Counted from the stretch's first letter, positions 137 through 32,119 are shown. The stretch: DNA of 64,000 nt from Urechidicola croceus (GCF_001761325.1 NZ_CP017478.1:1184001-1248000), one strand, 5' to 3'. The notes: generated by a model from the sequence alone, not told the origin. A program made the numbers and translations.

Positions 137-892
137 ATGGCAAAACAAACAGGTATTATCAAATTAAAAGGAACTATCGGAGGTATTTCTTTTTACAAAA
201 CAAGTGATGGACACCTTGCTCGTGAAAAAGGAGGTGTGGACAAAAACAGAATTCAGAATGATCCTGCGTTTCAGAGAACGCGAGAAAATGGTTCTGAATT
301 TGGTAGAGCTGGAAAAGGCGGTAAAGTATTGCGAAATGCGATTCGTTTGCTTTTACAGAATGCGAAAGACAAAAGAGTGGTTTCTCGATTGACAAAAACT
401 TTGGTGGCTGTTACCAAAACGGATGTTGTTAACGAAAGAGGTTTAAGAACCTTACAAGATGGAAATTTAGGTCTTTTAGAAGGTTTTGAATTCAATCTGA
501 ATGGAAAGTTGGGAGCAACTTTATTCGCTCCGTTTGCAAAAGCTTTTGACCGAGTTACAGGTGAAGCAACTTTAGATTTAGTAGCTTTTTCTCCAGTAGT
601 TAGAATTGCAGCTCCTGCAGGAACAACGCATTTCAAATTGGTTATGGGTGTTGCTGAATTAGATTTTGAGAATGAAACCTCAACTTTTGAAAGTGATGCT
701 ACCGCTATTTTACCATATACTGCTGCAGATACAGCAGCTATTGCATTATCGGCTACGATTACAGCAAATTCAACTTTGCCTGTTTCACAAGTTATTGGGG
801 TGGAGTTTTATCAGGAAGTAAATGGAGAAATGTATGCACTTAAAAATGGGGCTTACAATGCGTTATCAGTGGCAACTGTTGATACTCTATAA
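137..892 (+). CDS. Hypothetical protein, first gene of the DUF5675 cassette
   Basis: This 251-residue protein begins MAKQTGIIKLKGTIGGISFY and has no signal peptide or membrane segment. The N-terminal 60 residues are basic and glycine-rich (LAREKGGVDKNRI, FGRAGKGGKV). The C-terminal half is rich in beta-branched residues and looks like a beta-sandwich. I associate such proteins with flavobacterial cassettes that also carry DUF5675 genes, but the function is unknown to me. An A-rich leader (AAAAAAAGTAAAAATT) precedes the ATG. The DUF5675 gene starts two bases after the stop, so the two are probably co-transcribed. A structural role, for example in a phage-like particle, is only a guess. Confidence 0.7.
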   Translation: MAKQTGIIKLKGTIGGISFYKTSDGHLAREKGGVDKNRIQNDPAFQRTRENGSEFGRAGKGGKVLRNAIRLLLQNAKDKRVVSRLTKTLVAVTKTDVVNERGLRTLQDGNLGLLEGFEFNLNGKLGATLFAPFAKAFDRVTGEATLDLVAFSPVVRIAAPAGTTHFKLVMGVAELDFENETSTFESDATAILPYTAADTAAIALSATITANSTLPVSQVIGVEFYQEVNGEMYALKNGAYNALSVATVDTL

Positions 893-894
893 TT

Positions 895-1332
895 ATGGAA
901 TTAGTGCTACAAAGAGCTTATTTTAAACAGGGTACCAATGGTACTCTGTTTATTTCTGATTGGTTTCTTTGTCATACCATTGAGTTGCCCTGGAGAAACA
1001 ATCAACGAAACGTTTCCTGCATACCAGAAGGACAATATGAAATTATTCCTCGCTTTTCTAAAAAGTTTAAACATCATTTAATATTAAAAATTGTAGCCAA
1101 CAGAAGCTTTATTTTATTGCATCCTGCAAATGACGCCAAAAGAGATTTGCAAGGTTGTATTGCTCCCGTAACTTATTTAAGTGGTATTGGAAAAGGGGTT
1201 TATTCCAGAGATGCCATGCAGAAATTATTGTCTTTGGTATATCAAGCTCAAGACCGAAAAGAAAAAATACTATTAATTATTAAATCACAAAATCATGAAA
1301 ATTATAGAACGTTACCAAAAACCAACTCCTAA
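895..1332 (+). CDS. DUF5675 family protein
   Basis: This 145-residue protein matches DUF5675 as I recognise it: an N-terminal RAYFKQGTNGTLFISDWFLCHTIELP-type beta region, then PEGQYEI near residue 45, then HPANDAKRDLQGCI at residues 76-89. A conserved His76 followed by Gly87-Cys88 recalls the His...Gly-Cys arrangement of L,D-transpeptidase-like enzymes. That points to cell-wall chemistry, but it is inference and the family is formally of unknown function. It sits in an apparent operon, two bases after the upstream gene and overlapping the next gene by 38 bases. Two tiny membrane proteins follow, which gives a lysis-cassette look. Confidence 0.75.
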   Translation: MELVLQRAYFKQGTNGTLFISDWFLCHTIELPWRNNQRNVSCIPEGQYEIIPRFSKKFKHHLILKIVANRSFILLHPANDAKRDLQGCIAPVTYLSGIGKGVYSRDAMQKLLSLVYQAQDRKEKILLIIKSQNHENYRTLPKTNS

Positions 1333-2696: not shown

Positions 2697-3743
2697 TTAA
2701 TTATTATCAAGTAATTTATGATGTAATTTTATATTCTCAATTTCATAAACTTTTGTAGAAATGCATTCTAACTTATCTGGATTGAAAATAGCTAAATTAT
2801 AACCTTCAGCAAATAATGAACTCTGATATTCTACACCATCAAAACCTAATGATTTTATAAATTCAGAAATATATTGAGTAGGAATGTAATCTAATTGTTT
2901 ATCTCTTTTTCTTATTGGTAATGAGATTTCTTTTTGTAAAGTTTGTATAAATGGAACATAGGTTAAAAAATCTTCTATAGCCTCATTTTCAGACCAAGGA
3001 ATAGGGTCGTCTTTTGGATTTCTTAAATTAAGAATTTTTAGATCTTCATTTAAACGAAATTCACCGACTGTAACATAATCAAATAAAGATGCTCTTGTTT
3101 CATACAAAGATGTTTCTATTTTATCAGCTATATATAAATAAGATATTCCTTTAGGGTTTGCTCTACCACCAGAAGCTAATTCATTAGGTGGATTGCCCAT
3201 TTGATTTATAGTAAAACCTATTTTATCTGATACTCGACATCTGTAAAAAATACGACCTTTCTTTATCGTTTTATAAAAACTTTCGTGATTGAAAAAGTTG
3301 GCTAATTTTTTCAAATCAATTGTGTTATTGATATGATATCGATTTACAGATTTAATTTCTTCTTTAAATTCTTTCCAAATAGTATGAATTTGATTGGTTT
3401 CAGAAATTAGTTCAATCTTTATTTCTGACGATACATTACTATTGAATAATTCTGTTAATATTTCTTCTTCATCTACAAAAATAGATTCAAATAATAGTTT
3501 ATTATTATCAACTAAATTGGTAGTAAGATTAAAGTCTTTTTTTATGGATTGGGCAATATCAAAAACCGAATCAGCATTCACTTCATACAATGAAAATATA
3601 TTACGAAAAAAAGGAGCTAATTCTCTTGCTGAATAAATAGAAACATTTATTGAATTACAAAAATCACAATTCCCATTTCTATCATCAGCATTAATTATAC
3701 TTATCAAGTATTCGCTATTGAAACAATTTACACAACAATTCAT
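2697..3743 (-). CDS. HEPN/RES N-terminal domain plus RES-type NAD+ phosphorylase domain protein
   Basis: This 348-residue protein has an N-terminal zinc-binding knuckle (Cys3/Cys4, Cys7, Cys26, Cys29), a helical middle region, and a C-terminal RES domain at about residues 155-330. Candidate active-site residues are visible: Arg168 in FYRCR, Arg194 in GGRANPKG, Tyr202/Tyr204 and Glu210 in ISYLYIADKIETSLYE, and Ser308/Ser309 in EYQSSLF. Known RES toxins (MbcT type) degrade NAD+, and the Cys-rich start resembles the HEPN/RES N-terminal domain 1 family. It is the last gene of a tight operon, two bases after the sce7725 gene, with no separate antitoxin seen. An effector role that halts growth by NAD+ depletion is inferred. 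Confidence 0.8.
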   Translation of the reverse strand: MNCCVNCFNSEYLISIINADDRNGNCDFCNSINVSIYSARELAPFFRNIFSLYEVNADSVFDIAQSIKKDFNLTTNLVDNNKLLFESIFVDEEEILTELFNSNVSSEIKIELISETNQIHTIWKEFKEEIKSVNRYHINNTIDLKKLANFFNHESFYKTIKKGRIFYRCRVSDKIGFTINQMGNPPNELASGGRANPKGISYLYIADKIETSLYETRASLFDYVTVGEFRLNEDLKILNLRNPKDDPIPWSENEAIEDFLTYVPFIQTLQKEISLPIRKRDKQLDYIPTQYISEFIKSLGFDGVEYQSSLFAEGYNLAIFNPDKLECISTKVYEIENIKLHHKLLDNN

Positions 3744-3745
3744 AT

Positions 3746-4684
3746 TTAAATCTTATCTACAATTAATTCAATATGATTCATTATAGATAGTTTTTTTAAG
3801 GTGCCTAAACCAGGAAAGTGGCCACGATTATGAAGGTCTTTATAAATTTCAACAGCTTGGGTATTTATATTATTGCTAATAGACCAATTAACAAGTTTTT
3901 CAAGTGCTTCTGCAAATTTACCACCTATATCAGATACATCACCATTTGAGTCTGACACAAAGTGTTTTACCATTATTTTACCTGATGCATTAATATAAGA
4001 TAAATGCATTGCTACTGCTCTGGGTAAAAAACCTGAATCTGAATAATTATCGCCAACTGTTAAAAAATCAGAAAAACCAAAAAAGCCTTCGTCTTTATAA
4101 AAACGGTATTCTTCTGAAAAAGGACTTTCACCAACTTCAAGATAATCTGCATTTCTTGGCATATCTTTAAAATAATCATCTAATGATATTCTACTTTCTT
4201 CAGAAAATAGTCTATAATAACGCCTGCTTGTATTACTAAAGTAAATTATATTGTAAATAACATTTATATTATTTTGAATTTCGGCAATACTGACTTCAGA
4301 TATTTCAGAATTATGAATTAAAGTAACACCCTGATAGTTTAAGTCTAAATTATTTATACCTTCAATTAAAGCTGGAATTTGCTCTTCTATTTTTGTATCA
4401 ATAATTATTGCAATTTGATAATTGTTGTAATCTTGCAACACATCTTTAAGAAGTTCTATAATTTTATTTCCTTCTCCTACTAAACCACCAACTTTAGGAT
4501 TGATAATAACACTAAAATTTACTTTTTTAGCAGCTAAAGTTTTTAACGCAGATTTTAAAGTAGAAGAACCTTTAATTGGTTCGATTACTGGAGAAATTTT
4601 AGTAGAAAAATTGTGTAGTAAACCACATAACTCACGTAATGCGATTAACTCAAATTGTTTACCTCTGACATATGGGAAATACAT
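3746..4684 (-). CDS. sce7725 family (beta-type) protein
   Basis: This 312-residue protein begins MYFPYVRGKQFELIALREL, the typical opening of the sce7725 family. It has no signal peptide or membrane helix. The sequence reads as an alpha/beta barrel-like protein with SPVIEPIKG, NPKVGG and a C-terminal GLGTLKKLS segment, related to the 'beta protein' family. The family's biochemical activity is unknown to me. Its start lies 40 bases inside the end of the sce7726 gene and its stop two bases before the RES gene, so the three form one transcription unit. sce7725 and sce7726 genes are commonly found as a pair. Confidence 0.8.
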   Translation of the reverse strand: MYFPYVRGKQFELIALRELCGLLHNFSTKISPVIEPIKGSSTLKSALKTLAAKKVNFSVIINPKVGGLVGEGNKIIELLKDVLQDYNNYQIAIIIDTKIEEQIPALIEGINNLDLNYQGVTLIHNSEISEVSIAEIQNNINVIYNIIYFSNTSRRYYRLFSEESRISLDDYFKDMPRNADYLEVGESPFSEEYRFYKDEGFFGFSDFLTVGDNYSDSGFLPRAVAMHLSYINASGKIMVKHFVSDSNGDVSDIGGKFAEALEKLVNWSISNNINTQAVEIYKDLHNRGHFPGLGTLKKLSIMNHIELIVDKI

Positions 4685-5547
4685 AGCTTACTTTTTTTGT
4701 AAAGAAAATCTTCTAACTCAATAAAATCTTTTTTTGAAAAATTTAATGTGTAACAGATATGTTTTAATGAATCTGGTACTAAATCATCATTAAATAATTC
4801 TGGGTTAGAAATGTTTCTAAATTTTAATTCTTTTATAACTAATTTTTGAAACTCTAAAATATCTATTTTTTTTGAAAGTTTATAGCATTCTCTAAAAATT
4901 AGCGTGTTAGGAACTTTGGGAATTACTCCAAAATGTTTTTTTAGTAAACTAATATACTCGTCTTTTCTTAAACTTTTAAACAATGTTTCATAGGAAAATG
5001 AAAAATTTTGTTCTGCTTTTTTAATAGTTTTAAGTGCGTTTCTTTTTGTCAATTCAATTAAACCAATTTCTGTGTTATGAAATTTAACTAATAAATTAGG
5101 AATATGTTTTGAATTTGAAACTACATAGATTTTATCTGCAAATTTTTTATAATCTGCTAATTGTTTGTCTAATTTATCTAAACCATCTAATTCAGTTTTA
5201 ATTTCATAAACACGAGCTTCACCATTTAAAATAACAAAGTCTGCTATTGAATTACCAATTTTAAATTCTGATAGTGCTATTGATTTTTTTAAGCTATACT
5301 TTTTAAGAAGTTTTTGATTTAAAAGAATATTTTTATAAACATATTCATTTTTATAAGTACCTAAAAGTGATTTGTAAATAGTATTAATTACTTCGAAGTT
5401 AGTTGTAGAATCTGATATTTTTGTGTGCTTATTAATTCGATAAAATGTATCAAAATAATTCCTATCCTTTACTATTTTTTTAAAATTAGCAGGAGATAGA
5501 ATTTGTGATAAATTCCTTAAACTTTCTATATTTTTAGCTACTCGCAT
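4645..5547 (-). CDS. sce7726 family protein with PD-(D/E)XK nuclease fold
   Basis: This 300-residue protein carries a recognisable nuclease core at residues 90-145: Glu94 in ALSEFKIG, Asp103 in SIADFVI, Glu115-x-Lys117 in VYEIKTEL, then a helix with Gln129 and Tyr133. This is the E...D...ExK layout of restriction-endonuclease-like enzymes, and sce7726 proteins have it as a hallmark. The C-terminal 150 residues are helical and lysine-rich, perhaps for target binding. It is the first gene of the operon, 50 bases downstream of the DnaC-like ATPase gene. Nuclease activity is inferred from the motif only. Confidence 0.8.
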   Translation of the reverse strand: MRVAKNIESLRNLSQILSPANFKKIVKDRNYFDTFYRINKHTKISDSTTNFEVINTIYKSLLGTYKNEYVYKNILLNQKLLKKYSLKKSIALSEFKIGNSIADFVILNGEARVYEIKTELDGLDKLDKQLADYKKFADKIYVVSNSKHIPNLLVKFHNTEIGLIELTKRNALKTIKKAEQNFSFSYETLFKSLRKDEYISLLKKHFGVIPKVPNTLIFRECYKLSKKIDILEFQKLVIKELKFRNISNPELFNDDLVPDSLKHICYTLNFSKKDFIELEDFLYKKSKLCISHMSEVNNLS

Positions 5548-5597: not shown

Positions 5598-6260
5598 CTA
5601 TTTTCTTTTGTCTATACATTCTCTATCAAAAGCAATCAAATTAAATAATTGTCTCATTCTTGAGCGAACACGATTTCCATATCTATTTTCTAATTCTTGT
5701 GCGTTGAGGTTTGTGGTAGCGTGAGTTCTTAATTTTCTTTTTAAAAATAAATCATGACGAGATAAGAGAATTTCACCCATTACATTGCAATCTTTTCCGA
5801 AATGCCTTCCAGTTGTTTCTACCCCTAAATCATCAAAACAGTAAAAACCACTATTACCATAATCTTCAATAATTTTAAAACCACTTTTATTGAAATTAAA
5901 CGTAATATTTCTTGCAGGAATTACAATATGCTTAATTTGATGAGGTACAATGTGCGGTAATAATTTCATTAAACTTGTTTTACCACAACCTACTGGACCT
6001 GATAACAGAATTCCTTTATTTGGATCTATTTCTAATTTCTTACAAGTTTCAAAATCACGAATAAAATAGATGCACAACTTGTATAAAATTGCTTCATCTT
6101 CTGAATATATTTTAAAATTCTTACCGAACAATAATTTACCTTTTGCTTCTAAATAGATTAAAATTTTAGGGAAATTATAGCTTATTTTATTACCTGTCAA
6201 TTCACCTAATTGAAATTGCACACTTCCTTCTTGGATTATATGTGGTTGTATTTTAATCAT
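5598..6260 (-). CDS. DnaC/IstB-like P-loop ATPase of the element
   Basis: This 220-residue AAA+ type ATPase has Walker A GPVGCGKTS near residue 90, Walker B FYCFDDLG near residue 140, a sensor-like ATTN segment, and an arginine-rich NRVRSRM helix near the C-terminus. That order matches helicase loaders (DnaC) and IstB-type transposition ATPases. It overlaps the upstream replication-like gene by four bases (ATGA type). In Bacteroidota elements this pair follows an excisionase-like HTH gene and probably supports replication of the excised circle; that role is inferred. Confidence 0.75.
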   Translation of the reverse strand: MIKIQPHIIQEGSVQFQLGELTGNKISYNFPKILIYLEAKGKLLFGKNFKIYSEDEAILYKLCIYFIRDFETCKKLEIDPNKGILLSGPVGCGKTSLMKLLPHIVPHQIKHIVIPARNITFNFNKSGFKIIEDYGNSGFYCFDDLGVETTGRHFGKDCNVMGEILLSRHDLFLKRKLRTHATTNLNAQELENRYGNRVRSRMRQLFNLIAFDRECIDKRK

Positions 6261-6955
6261 AAAGGTTCATTATAGTTTTTATTTTTACTGGTCTTTAGGT
6301 TGTCCATATTTTGGCTAACTGATTTTTGGTTTGTTCTCGACTGCGCTCGAACTGACATCTCTTCTGCTTTTAACATCCAATTTTTTGCTGTTGCCTGCCA
6401 ATTGACAATTTTTGTTTTGCCGCCCACTTTCCAACCAATACCTTGGTAATGATTGTAAAATTTTTGAGCTTCAATTTTTGGCCAGTTTTCTTTTTTAAAA
6501 AAATCAATAACCTCTTTTTCATTTTTGGGCTGGTCAAGTTTAGTAACATTTTTATTGTTTTTATTAGTTTGTATATGTTTATTTATAGATACCAGTGCTT
6601 GTCCATTGCTTGTCTCGATATTGGTATTGTTGTGTACCAGAGCTTGTCCAGTAGTTGTCCCAAAATCGAACATCTTGATTTTACTTCCTTTGTATGGATT
6701 GTGAGATGGATAATAAATGATGTATTTCCAATGACTTAACTCTTTTATACATTTGTGATAGGTAGATTTAGAACCAATTTTTGAAAAACGCATTACTTCT
6801 TCTCGATTGATGTAAAATTCATCTAAAAATCGATTGTTATTCCATAGTTGAAATAGCGCGATATATAAACTCATATGTGTTGGATTAAGCCGATTATCTT
6901 TTGAGAATTGCAGGAATATACCTTTTAGATGTTTTATGAAATTTACGTTTTGCAT
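6257..6955 (-). CDS. Winged-helix replication-type protein of the element
   Basis: I choose the ATG at 6955 (MQNVNFIKHLKGIFLQFSKD). The frame is open up to 6976, but the seven added residues come from a repeat-like stretch. The N-terminal 110 residues look like a winged helix (THMSLYIALFQLWNNNRF, REEVMRFSKIGSKSTYHKCIKEL). A linker rich in Asn/Gln follows, then a C-terminal segment (FFKKENW..AQKFYNHYQGIGWKVGG..NWQATAKNWM) as in DnaD-like or primosome-type proteins of Bacteroidota elements. It overlaps the ATPase gene by four bases. Residues EMSVRAQSRT near the C-terminus are the translation of a dispersed repeat (6335-6361), so this tail is probably tolerated rather than functional. Confidence 0.65.
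   Translation of the reverse strand: MQNVNFIKHLKGIFLQFSKDNRLNPTHMSLYIALFQLWNNNRFLDEFYINREEVMRFSKIGSKSTYHKCIKELSHWKYIIYYPSHNPYKGSKIKMFDFGTTTGQALVHNNTNIETSNGQALVSINKHIQTNKNNKNVTKLDQPKNEKEVIDFFKKENWPKIEAQKFYNHYQGIGWKVGGKTKIVNWQATAKNWMLKAEEMSVRAQSRTNQKSVSQNMDNLKTSKNKNYNEPL
6335..6361. repeat. Flavobacterial dispersed repeat copy inside the replication-type gene
   Basis: The stretch contains CTCGACTGCGCTCGAACTGA, a variant of the short repeat seen throughout many flavobacterial genomes (core CGACTGCGCTC...TGACA). It is translated in frame as EMSVRAQSRT. A related copy lies upstream of the same gene at 6985-7032 and another inside cusA at 17179-17205. Confidence 0.6.
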
Positions 6956-6984
6956 AGTATAAACTTCTCGATACAATTTTATTA

Positions 6985-7044: not shown

Positions 7045-7323
7045 TTAGAACTTGTTATGAATTCTATTTTCTTCTAATACTTTTACAATTTCTTCATAAT
7101 CGTAATAAATAACACCACCTACTTTAGAGTAAGGAAGCGTGCCGTTAATTCTTAAATTTTGTAGTGTTCCTGGAGAGATACTTAACAAGTCTCTAACTTC
7201 TGGAGATTTTAACCATTTTTTAGGAGCAAAGCCCGATTGATGATTAATCATCGCTTTAATGTCTTCTAATAATTCTTCTTTAAACTCACGAAGATCTTCT
7301 GTAGTAATAATTGATGTTGGCAT
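7045..7323 (-). CDS. Helix-turn-helix (excisionase-like) protein
   Basis: This 92-residue protein has an N-terminal acidic helix (TEDLREFKEELLEDIKAMIN) and a C-terminal MerR/excisionase-type HTH_17 domain: KKWLKSPEVRDLLSISPGTLQNLRINGTLPYSKVGGVIYYDYEEI. Such proteins sit directly after rteC or before replication genes in Bacteroidota integrative elements. They act as recombination directionality factors or as regulators of excision. A good promoter (7411-7438) and a perfect palindrome (7450-7464) precede it. The function is inferred from fold and position. Confidence 0.8.
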   Translation of the reverse strand: MPTSIITTEDLREFKEELLEDIKAMINHQSGFAPKKWLKSPEVRDLLSISPGTLQNLRINGTLPYSKVGGVIYYDYEEIVKVLEENRIHNKF

Positions 7324-7589: not shown

Positions 7590-8459
7590 TTATTCGTCTG
7601 ATTCTATAATTTTATTTGTTAATGCTAGTTTTATTTTATCAATAAATTTAGTTTGATTTATTTTTCTTGATTTTATTTCTAAAAACGTTCTGTAATAATC
7701 ACCTAATTCTATTTTAAACATTTGCTCAAAAGCAGTTGCTAATTCTTTAATATCTGCTGTACCACTATTAATAACACCAGAACTATGTAGTGCATAAATG
7801 AGCTCAATTAAATCTGTTTTGTTACCAGTCCAAAATAATTTTGATTGGTTTTTAAAAGTGCCATAATTTGTTTCCATAGTATTCTTATTTTCTAACATAT
7901 CAATTTCTCTTTTTAAATAGACAATTAACATATCATAAGCCAATATTGTAGCAACAGTTGTATCGTGACTTGTAGAGAATTTATTATCTGTAAAAAAAGA
8001 AAGTGAATCTGGAAATAATCTTAAATCTATTTTACCTCTTATAAAATATTCTTCATCTAAAAACTGTGCACCTCTTCTGTAGTAATGATAAAACTCTAAA
8101 TTGTCATTAAAATAATCTTGTAGCTTATCAATGTGATTATAGAAATATTTAATTTGTGATTTGTTACTACTTCTTGGTCTCTTACTCTCTATGTTAAATA
8201 ATTTTACATAATAAATTAATTTACTAAATACATAAGGTTTAGAATTTTTAAAAAAGGATATTTCTTCATTTTTAGAAATATCATTAGACTTTAAAAACAA
8301 GGTTTTAATTTGTGCTAAAGCTCTTTTTGTTATTCTAATACCTTCTTCGGCTTTTTCAATAGCTCCTTCTGTTTCTTTTTCTAAAAAATCTAAATTATAG
8401 TCTAATTCTTCAATAATTTTTTCAATCTTTTTCAATTTTTTTAATGTGGGGAAAACCAT
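7590..8459 (-). CDS. rteC: RteC family regulator
   Basis: This 289-residue protein matches RteC, the regulator of excision in CTnDOT-type elements. It has an N-terminal coiled coil (KKLKKIEKIIEELDYNLDFLEKETEGAIEKAEEGI), a middle FYHYYRRGAQFLDEEYFIRG segment and a C-terminal TDLIELIYALHSSGVINSGTADIKELATAFEQMF helical domain. RteC activates the xis operon by binding upstream DNA, and here the next gene downstream is an excisionase-like HTH gene behind a palindrome. The start ATG at 8457-8459 lies inside one arm of a 9-bp inverted repeat. No two-component pair (RteA/RteB) is present, which differs from CTnDOT. Confidence 0.8.
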   Translation of the reverse strand: MVFPTLKKLKKIEKIIEELDYNLDFLEKETEGAIEKAEEGIRITKRALAQIKTLFLKSNDISKNEEISFFKNSKPYVFSKLIYYVKLFNIESKRPRSSNKSQIKYFYNHIDKLQDYFNDNLEFYHYYRRGAQFLDEEYFIRGKIDLRLFPDSLSFFTDNKFSTSHDTTVATILAYDMLIVYLKREIDMLENKNTMETNYGTFKNQSKLFWTGNKTDLIELIYALHSSGVINSGTADIKELATAFEQMFKIELGDYYRTFLEIKSRKINQTKFIDKIKLALTNKIIESDE

Positions 8460-8497: not shown

Positions 8498-8896
8498 TTA
8501 TTGGTTCATTTGCATACTATGATCATATTTACAACAACCTGGTAAATCTTTATAGGCTTCTTCACTTCCTGCAACTTTTTCGGTGTCGTAACCTGAAGCT
8601 GCTATTGCTTTATGAATTGCCATTGCATCCGTTTTTGAATCATCAAAAGAGACATCAATTTTCTTTTTATCGACATCCCAATTCGCACTTGCAACGCCTT
8701 CAACACCGTTAGCTGCTTTTTCGATAGTGTTTTTACACATTCCGCAATTTCCTCTTACACCAAAAGACAGGTCTGTCATTGCCATATCTTTTGATATTTC
8801 AGTAGTTGTGGTTTCTGTTTCTTTTTTAGTTTCGTTTTTACAACTTGTTAAACCTAATGCTGCTATTACAGCCAAACTTAAAATTACTTTCTTCAT
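8498..8896 (-). CDS. Heavy-metal-associated (HMA) domain lipoprotein
   Basis: This 132-residue protein has a lipoprotein signal peptide ending GLTSC (Cys19), a Glu/Thr-rich linker and an HMA domain with GNCGMCKNTIEKAA, whose metal-binding cysteines are Cys51 and Cys54. The C-terminus adds PGCCKYDHSMQMNQ, a Cys/His/Met-rich tail that suits Cu(I). It is probably anchored in the periplasm as a copper chaperone or sponge, like a lipid-anchored CopZ/MerP. It is the last gene of the copper cluster, downstream of the CusB-type adaptor. Confidence 0.8.
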   Translation of the reverse strand: MKKVILSLAVIAALGLTSCKNETKKETETTTTEISKDMAMTDLSFGVRGNCGMCKNTIEKAANGVEGVASANWDVDKKKIDVSFDDSKTDAMAIHKAIAASGYDTEKVAGSEEAYKDLPGCCKYDHSMQMNQ

Positions 8897-8932
8897 TGTT
8901 TTAAAATTTAATTGTTATTACTTGATTTATTA

Positions 8933-10711
8933 TTATTCTATTACTTGTTTTACTTCTCCACAGGTTAGCATTGCTTCACCAAAATATGGATTGATTACTT
9001 TTTCTTCTTTACTCAACCAATAAGCACCATTGTTGTTATCTGCCATTGGACAAAATTCTACATACACTTTTTCATTGACACCAAATAATTGAACCGCATT
9101 GATTAGATGCGATGATAAATGCTTGAAATGGTCTCTTTGAGCCTTTATATCAGAGGTTTTAGAAATAGAGGTCGCAGAAGATTGTATTTCTTTTACTAAT
9201 GACATCCAATGTGTATGAGCATTATTGTCTGATAATAATTTCATATCCACTTTACTTAAATTGTTTAATAAACTTGTTGCATTAACTGAAGTATTTTTTG
9301 AATCTTCTTTAACTAAAGCATCTTTTAAATTGATATAGTCATTGTAAACAACTTTTAGTTGTTCTTGAAATTTCTCTGATACTGTCAATCTTTCGTTCAT
9401 ATTAGTATGGCCACTTTCTTTTTTTAATACATTATTATCCATTCCTAAATGTCCTTCGTGACCAGTCATTACTTTGCCGCCATCTTTATTCATCATTGAT
9501 TTTTTACCTTGTAATTGAGCTGCTGCATCAACCGTAAAAGTTCCGTTAGTTACGATTTCATTTCCAACAAATAATCCTTCTAAAACTTCATATTCATTAC
9601 CAATTTGATTACCTAAAACAACTTCACGCATTTCAAAAACGGTTTGGTCTGGATTGGTTTTTAAATAGACAACAGAACGCTCACCTGTCCAAAGTACAGC
9701 AGATGCTGGGATTGTTAACACTTCATCATTACTACCTGTAACTCGTTCAATATTTGCGGTTACAAACATTCCTGGTTTAATTACATCGTTTTTGTTATTA
9801 AGCACCACACGTAAGGTTACTGTTCTTGTTTTGGTATTTAATATTGGTTCAATGAAATCTACTTTCCCTTTAAATTCCTTATTAGCATAAGCGTTTGTAG
9901 TCACTAAAACTTCTTGTCCCTTTTTAAATAAATCGATTTGATTTTCATAGACATCAAAGTTTGCCCAAACCGTATTGAGATTTGCAATTTTAAGCAATGG
10001 TTGACCTTGTTTGATGTAGTCGCCTTGTTCTACTAATTTTTCGGTAACTGTTCCTGAAACGGTTGCATAAACTGGAAAGTTTTCTTTTACTTTTCCAGTT
10101 TCTTCAATCTGATTGATTTGATTGTCAGAGAGCTTCCATAATTTTAATTTATTACGAACTGCCTTATATAATGCAGGTTGTGATTCCTTTAATGATGAAG
10201 CTGTAATCAATTCTTGTTGTGCTGCATACAATTCTGGCGAATAAATGGTTGCTAATAATTGACCTTTACGAACTTCCTCGCCTGTAAAACTGACATTCAA
10301 ACGTTCAATTCTACCCGAAAAATAACTTACTTGTACTGCATTAGCTTCTTCATTTTCAGCAATTTTACCTGATAATTTAATGGTGTTGCCATCAACATTA
10401 CCTTTGCCGACTATGGTTGTTTGGATATTGGCTAATGCTATCGCATTTTCAGTTAACTTAAATTGGTCTGCTAATAAACCATCTGAACTATTTGCTGCAG
10501 GAATTAAATCCATACCGCAGATAGGACAATCGCCTGGTTCTGGTTGCATAATTTGTGGATGCATAGAACACGTCCACATTTGATTGGTTTCTGCAACCTT
10601 ATCGTGATTATGGTCTGTTTCTTCTTTTGATGAACCACCGAAAAGCAACCATCCTAAAAGAACACCTGTTATGAGCAAACCAACGTATATTACTATTTTG
10701 TTATTTTTCAT
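8933..10711 (-). CDS. cusB: Efflux RND periplasmic adaptor (CusB type) with metal-binding and DUF3347 domains
   Basis: This 592-residue protein has an N-terminal membrane anchor (residues 7-24), a heavy-metal-binding module WTCSMHPQIM...GDCPICGMDLIP (Cys48, Met50, His51, Cys62, Cys65), then the barrel-sandwich and beta-barrel domains of membrane fusion proteins (GRIERLNVSFTGEEVRKGQ, VSGTVTEKLVEQGDYIKQG). A DUF3347 domain covers about residues 445-590 and ends with FCPMADNNNGAYWLS. It should link the CusA pump to the TolC-type channel and hand over Cu(I)/Ag(I). It overlaps the DUF305 gene by 11 bases. Confidence 0.85.
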   Translation of the reverse strand: MKNNKIVIYVGLLITGVLLGWLLFGGSSKEETDHNHDKVAETNQMWTCSMHPQIMQPEPGDCPICGMDLIPAANSSDGLLADQFKLTENAIALANIQTTIVGKGNVDGNTIKLSGKIAENEEANAVQVSYFSGRIERLNVSFTGEEVRKGQLLATIYSPELYAAQQELITASSLKESQPALYKAVRNKLKLWKLSDNQINQIEETGKVKENFPVYATVSGTVTEKLVEQGDYIKQGQPLLKIANLNTVWANFDVYENQIDLFKKGQEVLVTTNAYANKEFKGKVDFIEPILNTKTRTVTLRVVLNNKNDVIKPGMFVTANIERVTGSNDEVLTIPASAVLWTGERSVVYLKTNPDQTVFEMREVVLGNQIGNEYEVLEGLFVGNEIVTNGTFTVDAAAQLQGKKSMMNKDGGKVMTGHEGHLGMDNNVLKKESGHTNMNERLTVSEKFQEQLKVVYNDYINLKDALVKEDSKNTSVNATSLLNNLSKVDMKLLSDNNAHTHWMSLVKEIQSSATSISKTSDIKAQRDHFKHLSSHLINAVQLFGVNEKVYVEFCPMADNNNGAYWLSKEEKVINPYFGEAMLTCGEVKQVIE

Positions 10712-11192
10712 TTTCTAATCGTTTTATCATTGCTTTCATTTCTTCAATTTCCTTCTTCTGTGCTTTTATAATATCATCTGCCAACTTTTTGACCTCTGGG
10801 TCTTTTATATCAGCTCTTTCACTGGTTAAGATTGCTATGGAATGATGTGGTATCATACCTTTCATCCACAATATATCTCCAACTGTTGATTTTTGGTCAC
10901 GTACTAATCCTAAAGCTCCAAGAAAAAGTACTACACTACCTATAACAATTCCCAAATTCTTCTTTTTATTCTTATACATATTCCTCATAAAGAAAAACAT
11001 AATTAATGCCATTGTCGAGATGCCTAAACAAACCATATAGAATCTTGTAAGACTAAACCAAACGTGGTCAAACTCATATGTATTGAGATACATAGTGATG
11101 TACATTGCAACAAAAGATGCTCCTAACATTAAGAAAAATTTTGTATAGTTGCTCATTCCTTTTTCATTGTTTTTGTATCCTTGTGTGTTCAT
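10701..11192 (-). CDS. DUF305 domain membrane protein
   Basis: This 163-residue protein has three predicted membrane segments (about residues 19-36, 50-69, 80-97) and a short DUF305 domain with MKGMIPHHSIAILTSERA (His116, His117), ending in a Lys/Glu-rich coiled coil. DUF305 proteins accompany copper resistance genes, and the His/Met motif may bind metal outside the membrane; the mechanism is not known. It lies between copA and the adaptor gene in the same direction. Met13 is an alternative start. Confidence 0.8.
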   Translation of the reverse strand: MNTQGYKNNEKGMSNYTKFFLMLGASFVAMYITMYLNTYEFDHVWFSLTRFYMVCLGISTMALIMFFFMRNMYKNKKKNLGIVIGSVVLFLGALGLVRDQKSTVGDILWMKGMIPHHSIAILTSERADIKDPEVKKLADDIIKAQKKEIEEMKAMIKRLENEK

Positions 11193-11211
11193 AATATTTT
11201 GATTTTAATGG

Positions 11212-13935
11212 TTAAACTTTTATTGTTCTTAATCGTAGTGCATTACCTATAACCGAAACAGAGCTAAAACTCATTGCTAAAGCTGCTATCATTGGCGAGA
11301 GTAGTATTCCGAAGAACGGAAACAACACACCTGCTGCAATAGGTACTCCTAATGTGTTATAAATAAGTGCAAAAAATAGATTTTGCTTAATATTCTTCAT
11401 TACGGAATGACTTAAATTTTTAGCCTTTACAATGCCGTGTAAATCACCTTTTACAAGCGTTATCATTGCACTTTCTATCGCCACATCTGTTCCAGTACCC
11501 ATTGCAATACCTATATCACTTTTTGCCAATGCTGGTGCATCATTAATACCATCACCTGCCATAGCAACCACTTTTCCTTTTTCTTGCAGTTTCTCTACTT
11601 CTTTGAGTTTATCTTCTGGTAGCATACTGGTTTTGAAATCTGCCAAATTAAGTTCTGAAGCTACTGCTTGTGCGGTATCGTGATTATCGCCTGTAAGCAT
11701 TATAACATCAATGCCTTTATCTTGAAGTGTTTTAATTGCTTTGGCACTTGTTTCTTTTATTTTATCTCCAATAACAACATAGCCAACAACGGTTTTATCT
11801 ATCGACAAATAAGAAACTGTCTTACCTTGTTTTTGGTAAGATTTAGCTTCGTCTTTCATTTTAGAAGTAATATCTGCTTTGGCATATTCCATCATTTTAG
11901 GATTTCCTAATGCTAATTTTTTATCACTTATTATAGCTTCAACACCTTTTCCTGTAACAGCACTAAAGTTTTCAGATTTTATTATTTCAGCATTATGCTC
12001 TTTTCCATATTTAACTGTCGCTTCGGCTAATGGGTGTTCGCTATTGGTATTTAATGAAACGATGTATTGTAGTATCTCTTTTTCGCTTAAAGCATCATTA
12101 AAAGCACCAACTGTTTCTACTGTTGGTTTGCCTTCGGTAATCGTACCAGTTTTATCTACTATTAAAGTATCAACCTTATCCATTTTTTCAAGAGCTTCTG
12201 CATTTTTAATCAATACACCATTTTGAGCACCTTTTCCCACACCAACCATTACAGACATTGGTGTTGCTAAACCTAAAGCACAAGGACACGCAATGATTAG
12301 TACTGCAATTGCATTCACAAACGCATACACATAAACTGGTTCTGGACCCCAAATTGTCCAAACAATAAATGTGATAATAGAAATAAGAACTACAACTGGT
12401 ACAAAATAACCTGATACCTTATCTGCTAAATTCTGAATAGGTGCGCGACTTCTACTGGCATCATTAACCATATGAATGATTTGTGAGAGTAACGTATCAC
12501 TTCCTACTTTTTCCGCTTTCATCAAGAATGATTGATTCCCATTAATTGTTCCGCTACTTACTTTATCTTCTTGAGATTTGTTTACAGGAATAGGTTCTCC
12601 TGTAATCATAGATTCGTCAATGGTTGTTTCGCCTTCAGTTATCACACCATCTACAGGAATTTTATCACCTGGTTTTACTTTTAGAATATCATTTAATTCT
12701 ATCTTATTTATACTGACTTCAACTTCTTCTCCATCAACAATTTTTATTGCTTTATTAGGTGCTAACTTTAATAATTCTTTTACTGCCGAATTGGTTTTGC
12801 TATGTGCACGAGCTTCCAATAATTGACCTAATAACACTAAGGTTAGAATAACCGTTGCTGCTTCAAAATAGACGTGTACTGCACCTGACTCTGTTTTAAA
12901 TTGCTCTGGAAAAACATCAGGTATAAGCATCCCAACTACACTAAATAGCCAAGCAACACCAGCACCAATCCCAATGAGTGTAAACATATTAAGGTTCCAC
13001 GTTTTAATACTTTTGTAAGCACGTTCAAAAAACATCCAAGTAGCATAGAATACAACTGGAATGGATAAAGCAAACTGAATCCAATTCCAATATTTTTGTT
13101 CCATTATATCGTACAATGGATTGTTATTGAGCATTTCGCTCATTGCGATTATAAAAATTGGGAAAGTGAAAACGGATGCTATCCAAAACTTTTTCAATAG
13201 TTTTTTATAGGTTTTTTCTTCCGCTGATGCTTCAGGTTTCAATGGCACTAAATCCATACCGCAAATAGGACAAGAGCCCTCTTCATCTTTTACAACTTCT
13301 GGATGCATAGGACACGTCCATTGCTGTTTGTTTGTTGTGGTTAGACTTACTTCTTCGACTAAATCCATACCACAAACAGGACAGTCTCCTGGCTCATCGT
13401 AGGTTTTGTCACCTTCACAATGCATAGGACAATAAAATGTTCCTGTACCTTGTACTTCTGGTTTTGTTTTTTTCTCTTTATTAGCATCAGGTCTTTGACC
13501 TGCTTTAAAAATGCTATATGTACCACCATCTTTTTCTAAAACCTCTTGAAACTTTTCAATTGGTATTTCTGGTTTCATATCTATAGTAGCTTCGGCATTT
13601 TTTAAATCAACTGAAACGCTTTGTACACCTTCAACAGAAGAAAGTGTTTTTACTACGTGAGCTTTACAGCCATTACAGGTCATCCCATTAACTGGAAAAG
13701 TTCTTGTGATTAAGCCATTACCTTTATCTGGATGAATATGATATTTTGCTTTTTTTTCTTGTAGCGATTTTTCAAAATTGTCTATTGAAATATGCGCTGT
13801 CATTTCTATGGTTGCTGTTGATGTTTCAAAATCAATCTCCACATTTTCTACTCCTTCCACTTCTGACAAAGCATTATTAACAGTTCTCATACATCCTTTG
13901 CAGGTCATTCCTTGAATTTGATATTTGTGTTTCAT
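11212..13935 (-). CDS. copA: Copper-translocating P-type ATPase CopA
   Basis: This 907-residue P1B-1 ATPase exports Cu(I)/Ag(I) from the cytoplasm. It has two N-terminal HMA domains (Cys12/Cys15 and Cys87/Cys90 in GMTCKGC and GMTCNGC), then two heavy-metal-binding modules (Cys169 to Cys188 and Cys208 to Cys225, each ending GMDLV). The ATPase core follows with TGE (445-447), CPC (550-552) and the phosphorylation site DKTGT at Asp594, then GDGINDAPAL. It is longer than E. coli CopA (about 830) because of the two added modules. It is located between the HMA-AraC regulator and the DUF305 gene. Confidence 0.93.
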   Translation of the reverse strand: MKHKYQIQGMTCKGCMRTVNNALSEVEGVENVEIDFETSTATIEMTAHISIDNFEKSLQEKKAKYHIHPDKGNGLITRTFPVNGMTCNGCKAHVVKTLSSVEGVQSVSVDLKNAEATIDMKPEIPIEKFQEVLEKDGGTYSIFKAGQRPDANKEKKTKPEVQGTGTFYCPMHCEGDKTYDEPGDCPVCGMDLVEEVSLTTTNKQQWTCPMHPEVVKDEEGSCPICGMDLVPLKPEASAEEKTYKKLLKKFWIASVFTFPIFIIAMSEMLNNNPLYDIMEQKYWNWIQFALSIPVVFYATWMFFERAYKSIKTWNLNMFTLIGIGAGVAWLFSVVGMLIPDVFPEQFKTESGAVHVYFEAATVILTLVLLGQLLEARAHSKTNSAVKELLKLAPNKAIKIVDGEEVEVSINKIELNDILKVKPGDKIPVDGVITEGETTIDESMITGEPIPVNKSQEDKVSSGTINGNQSFLMKAEKVGSDTLLSQIIHMVNDASRSRAPIQNLADKVSGYFVPVVVLISIITFIVWTIWGPEPVYVYAFVNAIAVLIIACPCALGLATPMSVMVGVGKGAQNGVLIKNAEALEKMDKVDTLIVDKTGTITEGKPTVETVGAFNDALSEKEILQYIVSLNTNSEHPLAEATVKYGKEHNAEIIKSENFSAVTGKGVEAIISDKKLALGNPKMMEYAKADITSKMKDEAKSYQKQGKTVSYLSIDKTVVGYVVIGDKIKETSAKAIKTLQDKGIDVIMLTGDNHDTAQAVASELNLADFKTSMLPEDKLKEVEKLQEKGKVVAMAGDGINDAPALAKSDIGIAMGTGTDVAIESAMITLVKGDLHGIVKAKNLSHSVMKNIKQNLFFALIYNTLGVPIAAGVLFPFFGILLSPMIAALAMSFSSVSVIGNALRLRTIKV

Positions 13936-30868: not shown

Positions 30869-32119
30869 TTATAAGTAAAGTTCTTTTCTATTATTATCAA
30901 CTTTATTGACATTCAATTTAGCTCTCAAAACAGCCATATCTTCACTAACTTTTCTATCAATTATTTTAGCATAATGTTGTGTAGTCTTTAAAGATTTATG
31001 CCCTAACATTTTGCTAACAGATTCTATTGGCACACCATTGGTTAAAGTGACAGTTGTAGCAAAAGTATGACGTGCCAAATGAAAAGTTAGATTCTTATTT
31101 ATTTCACACAAATCTGCTATTTCTTTTAAATAGGCATTCATTTTTTGATTACTTAAAACAGGTAAAAGGTAATCACTATTTGCAAAATTTGAAGAAGAAC
31201 TGTATTTTTCTAAAATAACTTCTGGGGTTTTAAGTAACGGAATGTTACTTCGAGTATTTGTCTTTGTTCTTTTCGTTTTTATCCATCTATCTCCATCAAT
31301 ACCAATAACAATATCATTTTTTGATAGCTTTTTTACGTCTGCATATGACAAACCTGTAAAACAGCAAAAAACAAATATGTCTTTAACTTGTTCTAATCGT
31401 TTTATTGAGAATTCTTTTTCAATTAGTTTTTGTATTTCTTCTTTTGATAAGAACTCTCTATCTACTATCTTAAGTCTAGCTTTCCAATTAAAAAAAGGAT
31501 CTTTACTAATCCAGTCATTTGCATAAGCTATTCTAATTATTTTTTTGAAGTTTGTAATATACTTAATAGCTGTATTGTGACTACAATTTCTTTCAGTTTT
31601 TAAGTAATACTCAAAACCATGAATGAATTTATGATTCACTTCTCTTACTGGAATATCATCTTCTTCATATTCCAATTTTATAAAAGCTTCTAAATGTTTT
31701 TTTGCTGTTTTATACCTTTCAAGTGTACCAGGAGCAAAGTCTTTACCTACTAATTTTTTAACTTGTAAATTATGGCTTTGAAAAATCTCCAATAGCATTC
31801 TATTCTGTTTTTCTTTTCCATTTAATAAATTCCTAATTTTTAAAGCAGTTATTGTTTTATCTTCTTCGACTAATTTCTGATGTATTTTATAAACTTTATT
31901 TGAAATGCTATCAATATATCTATTTAGCTGTTGAGATTCAGATGAATTACCTTTTAATTTACCTGCAGAAGGTAACCATTTATTGATATCGGCTTTTCTT
32001 AAAATGCTTAATTCTGCCCTTTTGCCATTTACAGTAATTCTTAAGTAAATATTTGCTTTTCCATTTTTATCAGCTTTACTTCTTTTGATATAAAATATAA
32101 AGGAGAACGAATTTTTCAT
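30869..32119 (-). CDS. Tyrosine integrase of the mobile element
   Basis: This 416-residue site-specific recombinase has an N-terminal arm-binding domain (residues 1-90), a SAM-like core-binding domain (about 105-205) and a catalytic domain (about 220-400). Visible catalytic residues are His347, Arg350 (HLARH), His374 (LGHKS) and Tyr383 (QHYAKI). The first catalytic arginine is replaced by Ser258 in FTGLSYADV, as in IntDOT of CTnDOT, where an upstream arginine substitutes; Arg241 is a candidate here. It lies 240 bases from tRNA-Ser, the probable integration side. GGTGTC motifs upstream may be arm sites. Confidence 0.88.
   Translation of the reverse strand: MKNSFSFIFYIKRSKADKNGKANIYLRITVNGKRAELSILRKADINKWLPSAGKLKGNSSESQQLNRYIDSISNKVYKIHQKLVEEDKTITALKIRNLLNGKEKQNRMLLEIFQSHNLQVKKLVGKDFAPGTLERYKTAKKHLEAFIKLEYEEDDIPVREVNHKFIHGFEYYLKTERNCSHNTAIKYITNFKKIIRIAYANDWISKDPFFNWKARLKIVDREFLSKEEIQKLIEKEFSIKRLEQVKDIFVFCCFTGLSYADVKKLSKNDIVIGIDGDRWIKTKRTKTNTRSNIPLLKTPEVILEKYSSSSNFANSDYLLPVLSNQKMNAYLKEIADLCEINKNLTFHLARHTFATTVTLTNGVPIESVSKMLGHKSLKTTQHYAKIIDRKVSEDMAVLRAKLNVNKVDNNRKELYL

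What the first reader, a model, noticed from the sequence alone, without database searches (positions are those of the whole stretch)
2697..5547. sce7726-sce7725-RES operon: candidate nuclease plus NAD+-depleting defence or toxin module
Seen: three minus-strand genes are packed with a 40-base overlap (sce7726/sce7725) and a two-base gap (sce7725/RES). The first has an E94...D103...E115xK117 nuclease core, the second is a beta-type protein of unknown function, and the third has a Cys-rich N-terminus and a RES domain with Arg168, Arg194, Glu210 and Ser308. Known: RES domains of the MbcT kind consume NAD+, and sce7725/sce7726 genes travel as a pair. Inferred: the RES protein is a growth-halting effector and the nuclease/beta pair senses or processes foreign DNA. 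It sits at the end of a mobile element, where defence cargo is common. I do not know of a described system with this trio.
Basis: partly seen in the sequence, partly recalled or inferred. Interest (0 to 1): 0.75.

Follow-up and report, generated by a model that had tools for sequence, protein, structure and literature searches.

The report
Mobile three-gene RES-type phage-defence operon
Three packed genes (a nuclease, a barrel-fold protein and a predicted NAD+-destroying RES enzyme) travel together between very different bacteria and sit in a slot that mobile elements otherwise fill with known anti-virus systems, so this is very probably an undescribed phage-defence system, and it would give RES toxins their first role in immunity.

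Summary
In detail: sce7726 (nuclease), sce7725 and a HEPN_RES_NTD1-RES gene form one tight minus-strand operon at 2697-5547. One residue was misread: the invariant Glu is E215, not E210. The linkage is strong. All 19 complete RES-seeded genome loci carry the trio in this order. Of 20 sce7725-seeded Bacteroidota loci, 16 carry the trio and all carry sce7726. Trios also occur on Proteobacterial plasmids, in prophage contigs, on a Salmonella conjugative element and in 18 of 5,426 E. coli genomes. RES is missing in several lineages while the pair persists. Position supports defence. In Flavobacteriaceae the trio sits in a fixed slot of a mobile element; other copies of that slot hold Avs4, Argonaute, SoFic and type II RM, and related elements hold Gabija, SIR2-HerA and Olokun. 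In E. coli it sits beside Pycsar/TIR/caspase, Kiwa-like and retron-like genes. sce7726 folds as a PD-(D/E)XK nuclease, sce7725 as a TIM-like barrel with conserved polar residues at the mouth, and RES keeps the expected NAD+ active-site residues. Conclusion: a new, mobile, probably abortive-infection system with a RES effector. Phage restriction, toxicity and trigger are untested. A 2024 paper states that no RES toxin-antitoxin system had been implicated in immunity.

The parts
4645..5547 (-). sce7726 family protein: PD-(D/E)XK-type nuclease (first gene of the operon)
   Evidence: NF033832 E 5.9e-48; AF2 model pLDDT 89.7, Foldseek PDB hits are PD-(D/E)XK proteins
5149..5346 (-). nuclease core: E68 ... 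E94 ... D103 ... E115xK117 ... Q129xxxY133
   Evidence: invariant or nearly so in 59 homologues
3746..4684 (-). sce7725 family protein: distant Beta_protein relative, predicted TIM-like barrel with conserved polar mouth (R7/K9, E35, N62, D170, S190)
   Evidence: NF033831 E 1.5e-85; PF14350 in 7/23 members; AF2 pLDDT 91.3 pTM 0.89
2697..3743 (-). HEPN_RES_NTD1-RES protein: predicted NAD+-consuming effector
   Evidence: PF08808 E 6.1e-17; alignment A4
3657..3734 (-). putative zinc knuckle C4-x2-C7 ... C26-x2-C29
   Evidence: four Cys invariant in 46 of 46 relatives with letters there
3324..3686 (-). HEPN_RES_NTD1 domain (aa 20-140)
   Evidence: PF18870 E 7.4e-6, 26.8 bits against cut-off 27.4
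2763..3197 (-). RES domain (aa 183-327) with R194, Y204, E215, S308, N316; R168/R170 lie just upstream
   Evidence: PF08808; invariance; ParT alignment
5598..6260 (-). DnaC/DnaI-like ATPase of the mobile element: one border of the cargo slot
   Evidence: NF005992/DnaI-like E 2e-9; 113 of 351 family genomes carry a relative
6257..6976 (-). 239-aa backbone protein of the element
   Evidence: kept next to the DnaC-like gene in other copies
7045..7323 (-). HTH_17 backbone protein
   Evidence: PF12728 E 2.5e-10
7590..8459 (-). RteC (CTnDOT-type regulator)
   Evidence: PF09357 E 2.3e-78
137..892 (+). 251-aa backbone protein: other border of the cargo slot
   Evidence: same place in 12 trio loci and in 9 copies with other cargo
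895..1332 (+). 145-aa backbone protein (DUF5675-like, inferred), other border of the slot
   Evidence: homologues flank the slot
30869..32119 (-). tyrosine integrase of the element or of an adjacent one
   Evidence: PF00589 E 5.8e-19 at G000:C1:1214965-1215453

Best explanation
The operon is a mobile anti-phage system. Its core is a PD-(D/E)XK nuclease (sce7726) plus a TIM-like barrel protein (sce7725). Its third gene is a RES enzyme that, once triggered, destroys NAD+ and halts the infected cell (abortive infection). Shown here: family identity, intact active-site residues, conserved order, horizontal spread, location in defence-cargo slots, and repeated presence or absence of RES on a stable pair. 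Inferred: that the pair holds RES inactive and releases it on infection, that the nuclease acts on invading DNA or produces the trigger, and that RES is an NAD+ phosphorylase or hydrolase rather than a protein modifier. In RES-less forms the nuclease pair presumably acts alone.
For: Linkage: 19/19 complete RES-seeded loci have the trio in order. sce7725-seeded samples: 16 of 20 above cut-off have the trio and 20 of 20 have sce7726 next to sce7725. Spread: trio on Rhizobium, Shinella and Moraxella plasmids and on a Salmonella ICE, in prophage-type contigs and in 18/5426 E. coli; the tree mixes phyla and elements. Defence context: the same slot of the same element backbone holds type II RM, pAgo+PDC-S56, Avs4 and SoFic; related elements hold SIR2-HerA, Gabija and Olokun. 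E. coli copies lie beside Pycsar/TIR/caspase, KwaB-like and RT+PRTase genes, with BREX and AbiE nearby. Catalysis: RES R168, R170, R194, Y204, E215, S308, N316 invariant or nearly so, matching NatT/ParT active-site residues (PMC11535050). Nuclease fold and motif. Mosaic swapping of the RES middle in two backbones suggests an arms race.
Against: No phenotype data for any member. PADLOC has no model for sce7725 or this RES protein. The sce7726 match to PADLOC 'cll' (E 6.8e-16) is undescribed in the output. In Bacteroidota outside the slot family, neighbours are only modestly defence-rich. The NatT paper reports no phage phenotype for that RES toxin (PMC11535050), so a RES domain alone does not mean defence. 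A toxin-antitoxin reading is not excluded.
Confidence: 0.62

Rival explanations
1. It is a three-part toxin-antitoxin or addiction module: RES is the toxin, sce7725 and/or sce7726 the antitoxin, and its job is to stabilise the mobile element; phage protection, if any, is secondary.
For: RES domains are mostly toxins of TA modules (PMC11535050). All 19 complete RES-seeded loci have the pair, while the pair occurs without RES, as orphan antitoxins do. It rides plasmids, ICEs and prophages.
Against: No Xre/MbcA/ParS-type or HTH gene is in the operon. Both partners keep apparent enzyme cores, unlike usual antitoxins. Pair-only forms keep the nuclease core in 10 of 13 cases. The slot it occupies holds defence systems.
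Confidence: 0.2
2. The nuclease/barrel pair is the whole defence (restriction-like DNA cutting) and RES is an accessory or back-up suicide switch, as in layered systems.
For: The pair is the conserved core (20/20); RES is separable, with at least about five gain or loss events on the tree (L101 is cut by its contig end and should not be counted). The nuclease fold is close to SfsA, NucS, SduA and Cas4-type proteins.
Against: RES is present in 16 of 20 sce7725-seeded Bacteroidota loci. No methylase or other self/non-self partner is in the operon. Enterococcus/Listeria pair-only copies have a broken nuclease core (D103C).
Confidence: 0.13
3. RES modifies a protein or nucleic acid (ADP-ribosyl transfer, as ParT does) instead of depleting NAD+.
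For: [quoted passage not shown] The N-terminal zinc knuckle and HEPN_RES_NTD1 domain could bind a substrate.
Against: Counterparts of the NatT active-site residues are kept (PMC11535050), but the sequence does not separate the reactions.
Confidence: 0.05

Closest known systems
RES-Xre toxin-antitoxin modules (MbcTA, NatRT, ParST, RES-Xre of P. putida)
   Same: RES domain with the R-Y-E-S-N active-site residues; NAD+ as substrate expected
   Different: No Xre/MbcA/ParS antitoxin; a zinc knuckle and HEPN_RES_NTD1 domain precede the RES domain; partners are a PD-(D/E)XK nuclease and a barrel protein; sits in defence-cargo slots
NADase abortive-infection systems (Thoeris, DSR1/DSR2, SIR2-HerA, SPARTA)
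   Same: Predicted NAD+-consuming effector with upstream partner genes, defence-cargo location; SIR2-HerA is even found in a related element
   Different: RES instead of TIR or SIR2 effector; no HerA, Argonaute or cyclic-nucleotide synthase
Shedu (SduA) and Gabija-like nuclease defences
   Same: PD-(D/E)XK nuclease (Shedu) or nuclease plus partner on mobile elements; SduA is among the weak structural hits of sce7726 (E 0.056)
   Different: Different nuclease family, and the partner is not a helicase
RES + phospholipase-D + SduA-domain operon on the Priestia plasmid (L049)
   Same: A related RES protein (about 31% identity) next to nuclease-type genes
   Different: No sce7725 or sce7726; other partners

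Membership tests
RES toxin superfamily (PF08808) | RES domain above curated cut-off | tested here: met
   62.5 bits against 23.2; 64.4 bits in the whole-genome search
RES toxin superfamily (PF08808) | conserved active-site Arg, Tyr, Glu, Ser, Asn | tested here: met
   R168/R170/R194/Y204/E215/S308/N316 invariant in 46-47 sequences; residues listed for NatT in PMC11535050
RES-Xre type II toxin-antitoxin module | adjacent Xre/MbcA/ParS antitoxin gene | tested here: not met
   neighbours are sce7725 and sce7726; no other gene in the operon
RES-Xre type II toxin-antitoxin module | toxicity neutralised by partner | not testable with these tools
   needs expression assay
PD-(D/E)XK nucleases | core fold | tested here: met
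   AF2 pLDDT 89.7; top PDB hit 3dnx E 8.4e-5, weaker hits SfsA, NucS, SduA, Cas4-type
PD-(D/E)XK nucleases | (E)...D...ExK catalytic residues | tested here: met
   E94, D103, E115, K117 present in all 46 trio members aligned
Beta_protein PF14350 | profile match | tested here: inconclusive
   7 of 23 members at E<=5, best 8.9e-6; the window protein itself not listed
Catalogued defence systems (PADLOC) | all components matched by a named system | tested here: not met
   only sce7726 hits a model ('cll', E 6.8e-16); no model for the others
Anti-phage defence systems in general | repeated location in defence islands or defence-cargo slots | tested here: met
   E. coli loci; element slot
Anti-phage defence systems in general | reduces phage plating | not testable with these tools
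   needs plaque assay

The most novel reading that the evidence does not exclude
A RES NAD+ phosphorylase is a true immune effector, controlled by a nuclease plus a TIM-barrel enzyme that makes, reads or removes a small trigger molecule (for example a nucleotide released by the nuclease, or an ADP-ribose phosphate). This would be a signalling logic not seen in TIR or SIR2 systems. The conserved polar residues at the barrel mouth (R7/K9, E35, N62, D170, S190) allow this but do not prove it.
Probability: 0.2. Interest if true: 0.88.

Novelty: new variant of a known kind. Interest (0 to 1): 0.72.

Why it matters
The 2024 NatT paper (PMC11535050) states that no RES-domain toxin-antitoxin system had been implicated in immunity and that known immune systems targeting NAD use only TIR and SIR2 enzymes. 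This operon puts a RES enzyme in clear defence-cargo positions across several phyla, including E. coli copies ready for test, so the open question of what RES enzymes are for becomes directly testable. It also suggests a function for sce7725/sce7726, two widely annotated families for which no role was found in the literature searched.

Tried and rejected
Literature searches for sce7725/sce7726 gave only incidental mentions, and none of the searches found a described trio. Searching PF14350 or Beta_protein in papers returned noise. PDB sequence searches with profiles found nothing useful for sce7725 or sce7726. Foldseek of sce7725 against PDB gave only generic TIM barrels with TM 0.3-0.4, so no enzyme class is claimed; in the viral library the best hit is an unnamed Gordonia phage protein (TM 0.64). 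A comparison of general neighbours in Bacteroidota against random loci was too blunt: redundant Type I specificity models inflate the case count, and control hits include common proteins; the slot comparison replaced it. A tRNA-Ser attachment repeat at the left end of the element was looked for and not found. CtnDOT TraJ was not found in the genome, but that search had no positive control. The meaning of the PADLOC 'cll' model could not be found. Considered and rejected: a chance neighbourhood (order conserved across phyla), and a decayed remnant (active sites intact).

Full report
OBSERVATION. Profile matches are strong. PADLOC matches only sce7726, to an undescribed model named 'cll'. The RES gene also matches HEPN_RES_NTD1 just under its cut-off, and its Cys-rich start is an invariant CxxC...CxxC. 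In a weak alignment to ParT (E 2.2, not significant alone) the GRxN arginine aligns with R194 and the ParT glutamate with E215. NatT active-site residues R23, R82, Y93, S184 and N193 (PMC11535050) have invariant or near-invariant counterparts in R168/R170, R194, Y204, S308 and N316 (the pairing is my inference from order and spacing).

LINKAGE. A scan of 84,980 species genomes with the RES protein returned 20 loci; all 19 complete ones carry sce7726-sce7725-RES in that order, from 93% down to 33% identity, in Flavobacteriia, Sphingobacteriia and Saprospiria. This scan is seeded on RES, so I also sampled with sce7725 alone. An order-level sample of 398 genomes gave 8 loci above cut-off, 4 trios and 4 pairs without RES. 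A phylum-level sample of 396 gave 14, 13 of them trios. Together these are 20 distinct loci (the window included): 16 trios, 4 pairs, and sce7726 beside sce7725 in all 20. The family is rare (8/398 and 14/396 genomes).

SPREAD. Trios are on plasmids of Rhizobium, Shinella and Moraxella, on a conjugative element in Salmonella houtenae, in a faecal phage contig and in prophage-type viral contigs. Pair-only copies occur in Enterococcus and Listeria and in several viral contigs. On the sce7725 tree, plasmid, phage and Bacteroidota rows are mixed and the RES label needs six to seven changes. One pair-only row (L101) ends at its contig edge and should not be counted, which leaves about five. So the pair is the stable core and RES a repeatedly gained or lost third part.

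DEFENCE CONTEXT, E. COLI. The Salmonella trio DNA finds 18 of 5,426 complete E. coli genomes at 97-98% identity. In the four loci read, the trio lies in the cargo part of an integrase/relaxase element. Neighbours are a Pycsar-type cyclase/TIR/caspase set, KwaB-like genes, a reverse transcriptase with a phosphoribosyltransferase-like gene, and AbiE plus BREX beyond the element.

DEFENCE CONTEXT, FLAVOBACTERIACEAE. In the window and 12 related loci the trio lies between RteC/HTH_17/239-aa/DnaC-like genes and the 145-aa/251-aa gene pair. The DnaC-like gene occurs in 113 of 351 sampled family genomes. I read the slot in 20 other copies, one of them cut short. Nine share both borders. Their cargo is: type II RM (L166, L167, L177), pAgo with PDC-S56 (L168), Avs4 (L169; L170 has the same architecture), SoFic (L176), and two unmatched operons (L180, L181). 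So 7 of 9 strict slots hold known defence. Copies sharing only the DnaC-side border hold SIR2-HerA (L172), Gabija (L175, L178; L182 same architecture), Olokun (L183) and others. At protein level 13 of 20 slot proteins match PADLOC at E<=1e-10, against at most 13 protein-family matches among 144 random-locus proteins at 1e-15; thresholds differ and the slot proteins were chosen by size, so this is only indicative. This slot is the strongest evidence that the trio is defence cargo.

PROTEINS. sce7726: AF2 pLDDT 89.7; top Foldseek hits are PD-(D/E)XK proteins; E94, D103, E115, K117 and Q129 are present in all trio members. The QxxxY motif recalls RecB/Cas4-type nucleases (my knowledge). sce7725: AF2 pLDDT 91.3, pTM 0.89. 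Eight alternating strand-helix units and generic TIM-barrel hits indicate a TIM-like barrel. R7/K9, E35, N62, D170 and S190 sit at the C-terminal ends of strands 1, 2, 3, 7 and 8, where TIM barrels hold their active sites, so sce7725 may bind or act on a small molecule (inference). RES: complete active-site set, and a middle segment that is swapped between loci whose other two genes are 88-100% identical, in two separate backbones, which looks like diversifying pressure on the effector.

MECHANISM. Most likely an abortive-infection system: infection perturbs the sce7726/sce7725 complex, RES is released, and NAD+ collapses. Evidence reaches as far as components and context; activity, trigger and order of events are inferred. 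A toxin-antitoxin function is the main rival.

NOVELTY. No paper found describes the trio or any function for sce7725/sce7726 (the library lacks most subscription papers). PMC11535050 says no RES toxin-antitoxin system had been implicated in immunity. I rate it a new variant of a known kind (NAD-targeting abortive infection), with a new effector family and new partners.

Noticed in passing
window 2900-3740 against L023, L025; L013 against L024: The middle of the RES gene is exchanged as a cassette between loci whose sce7726/sce7725 are mostly 85-100% identical; identity drops to 60-77% and recovers in the last 200 bases. Two independent backbones show it.
   Followed up: partly
L171:4326-10488, L180:4170-10340, L175:6417-12624, L184:7229-12487: A four-gene operon (about 445/216/1080-1100/315 aa, with GEGGSGKS or GESGSGKS Walker A in the large protein) recurs next to the same DnaC-like border. 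The L171 proteins tested match nothing in Pfam, and the large L171 and L175 proteins match nothing in PADLOC. It looks like a Wadjet-like candidate system.
   Followed up: partly
L181:2259-6703: A two-gene cargo (946-aa PIN_12 protein and a metallo-beta-lactamase-fold protein) in the strict defence slot, unmatched in PADLOC for the PIN protein: candidate defence pair.
   Followed up: no
L174:5050-10647: One element of the family carries a reverse-oriented operon with a secretin-domain protein in the slot position.
   Followed up: no
L040:4306-5957, L050:2608-4457: In Enterococcus and Listeria the sce7726 partner has lost its nuclease core (D103C, E94D, Q129 absent) while sce7725 is kept; no RES follows.
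   Followed up: partly
L103:6001-6462, L104:6001-6384: Two viral contigs carry a short sce7725 (153 and 127 aa) next to a full sce7726.
   Followed up: no
L044, L046, L108:15844-16868: Broken copies: sce7725 cut beside an IS3 (Arthrobacter), RES with only a scrap of sce7725 near IS6100 (Glutamicibacter), frameshifted RES (E. coli UTME-9).
   Followed up: no
L049:5001-9659: On a Priestia plasmid a related RES protein heads a gene run with a phospholipase-D-type protein and a Shedu SduA-domain protein: a second RES-nuclease association.
   Followed up: no
window 8498-13935: The same element also appears to carry copper/heavy-metal genes (HMA protein, efflux adaptor, DUF305-like, P-type ATPase; named by eye from the sequence); relatives of them flank the trio in several loci.
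   Followed up: no
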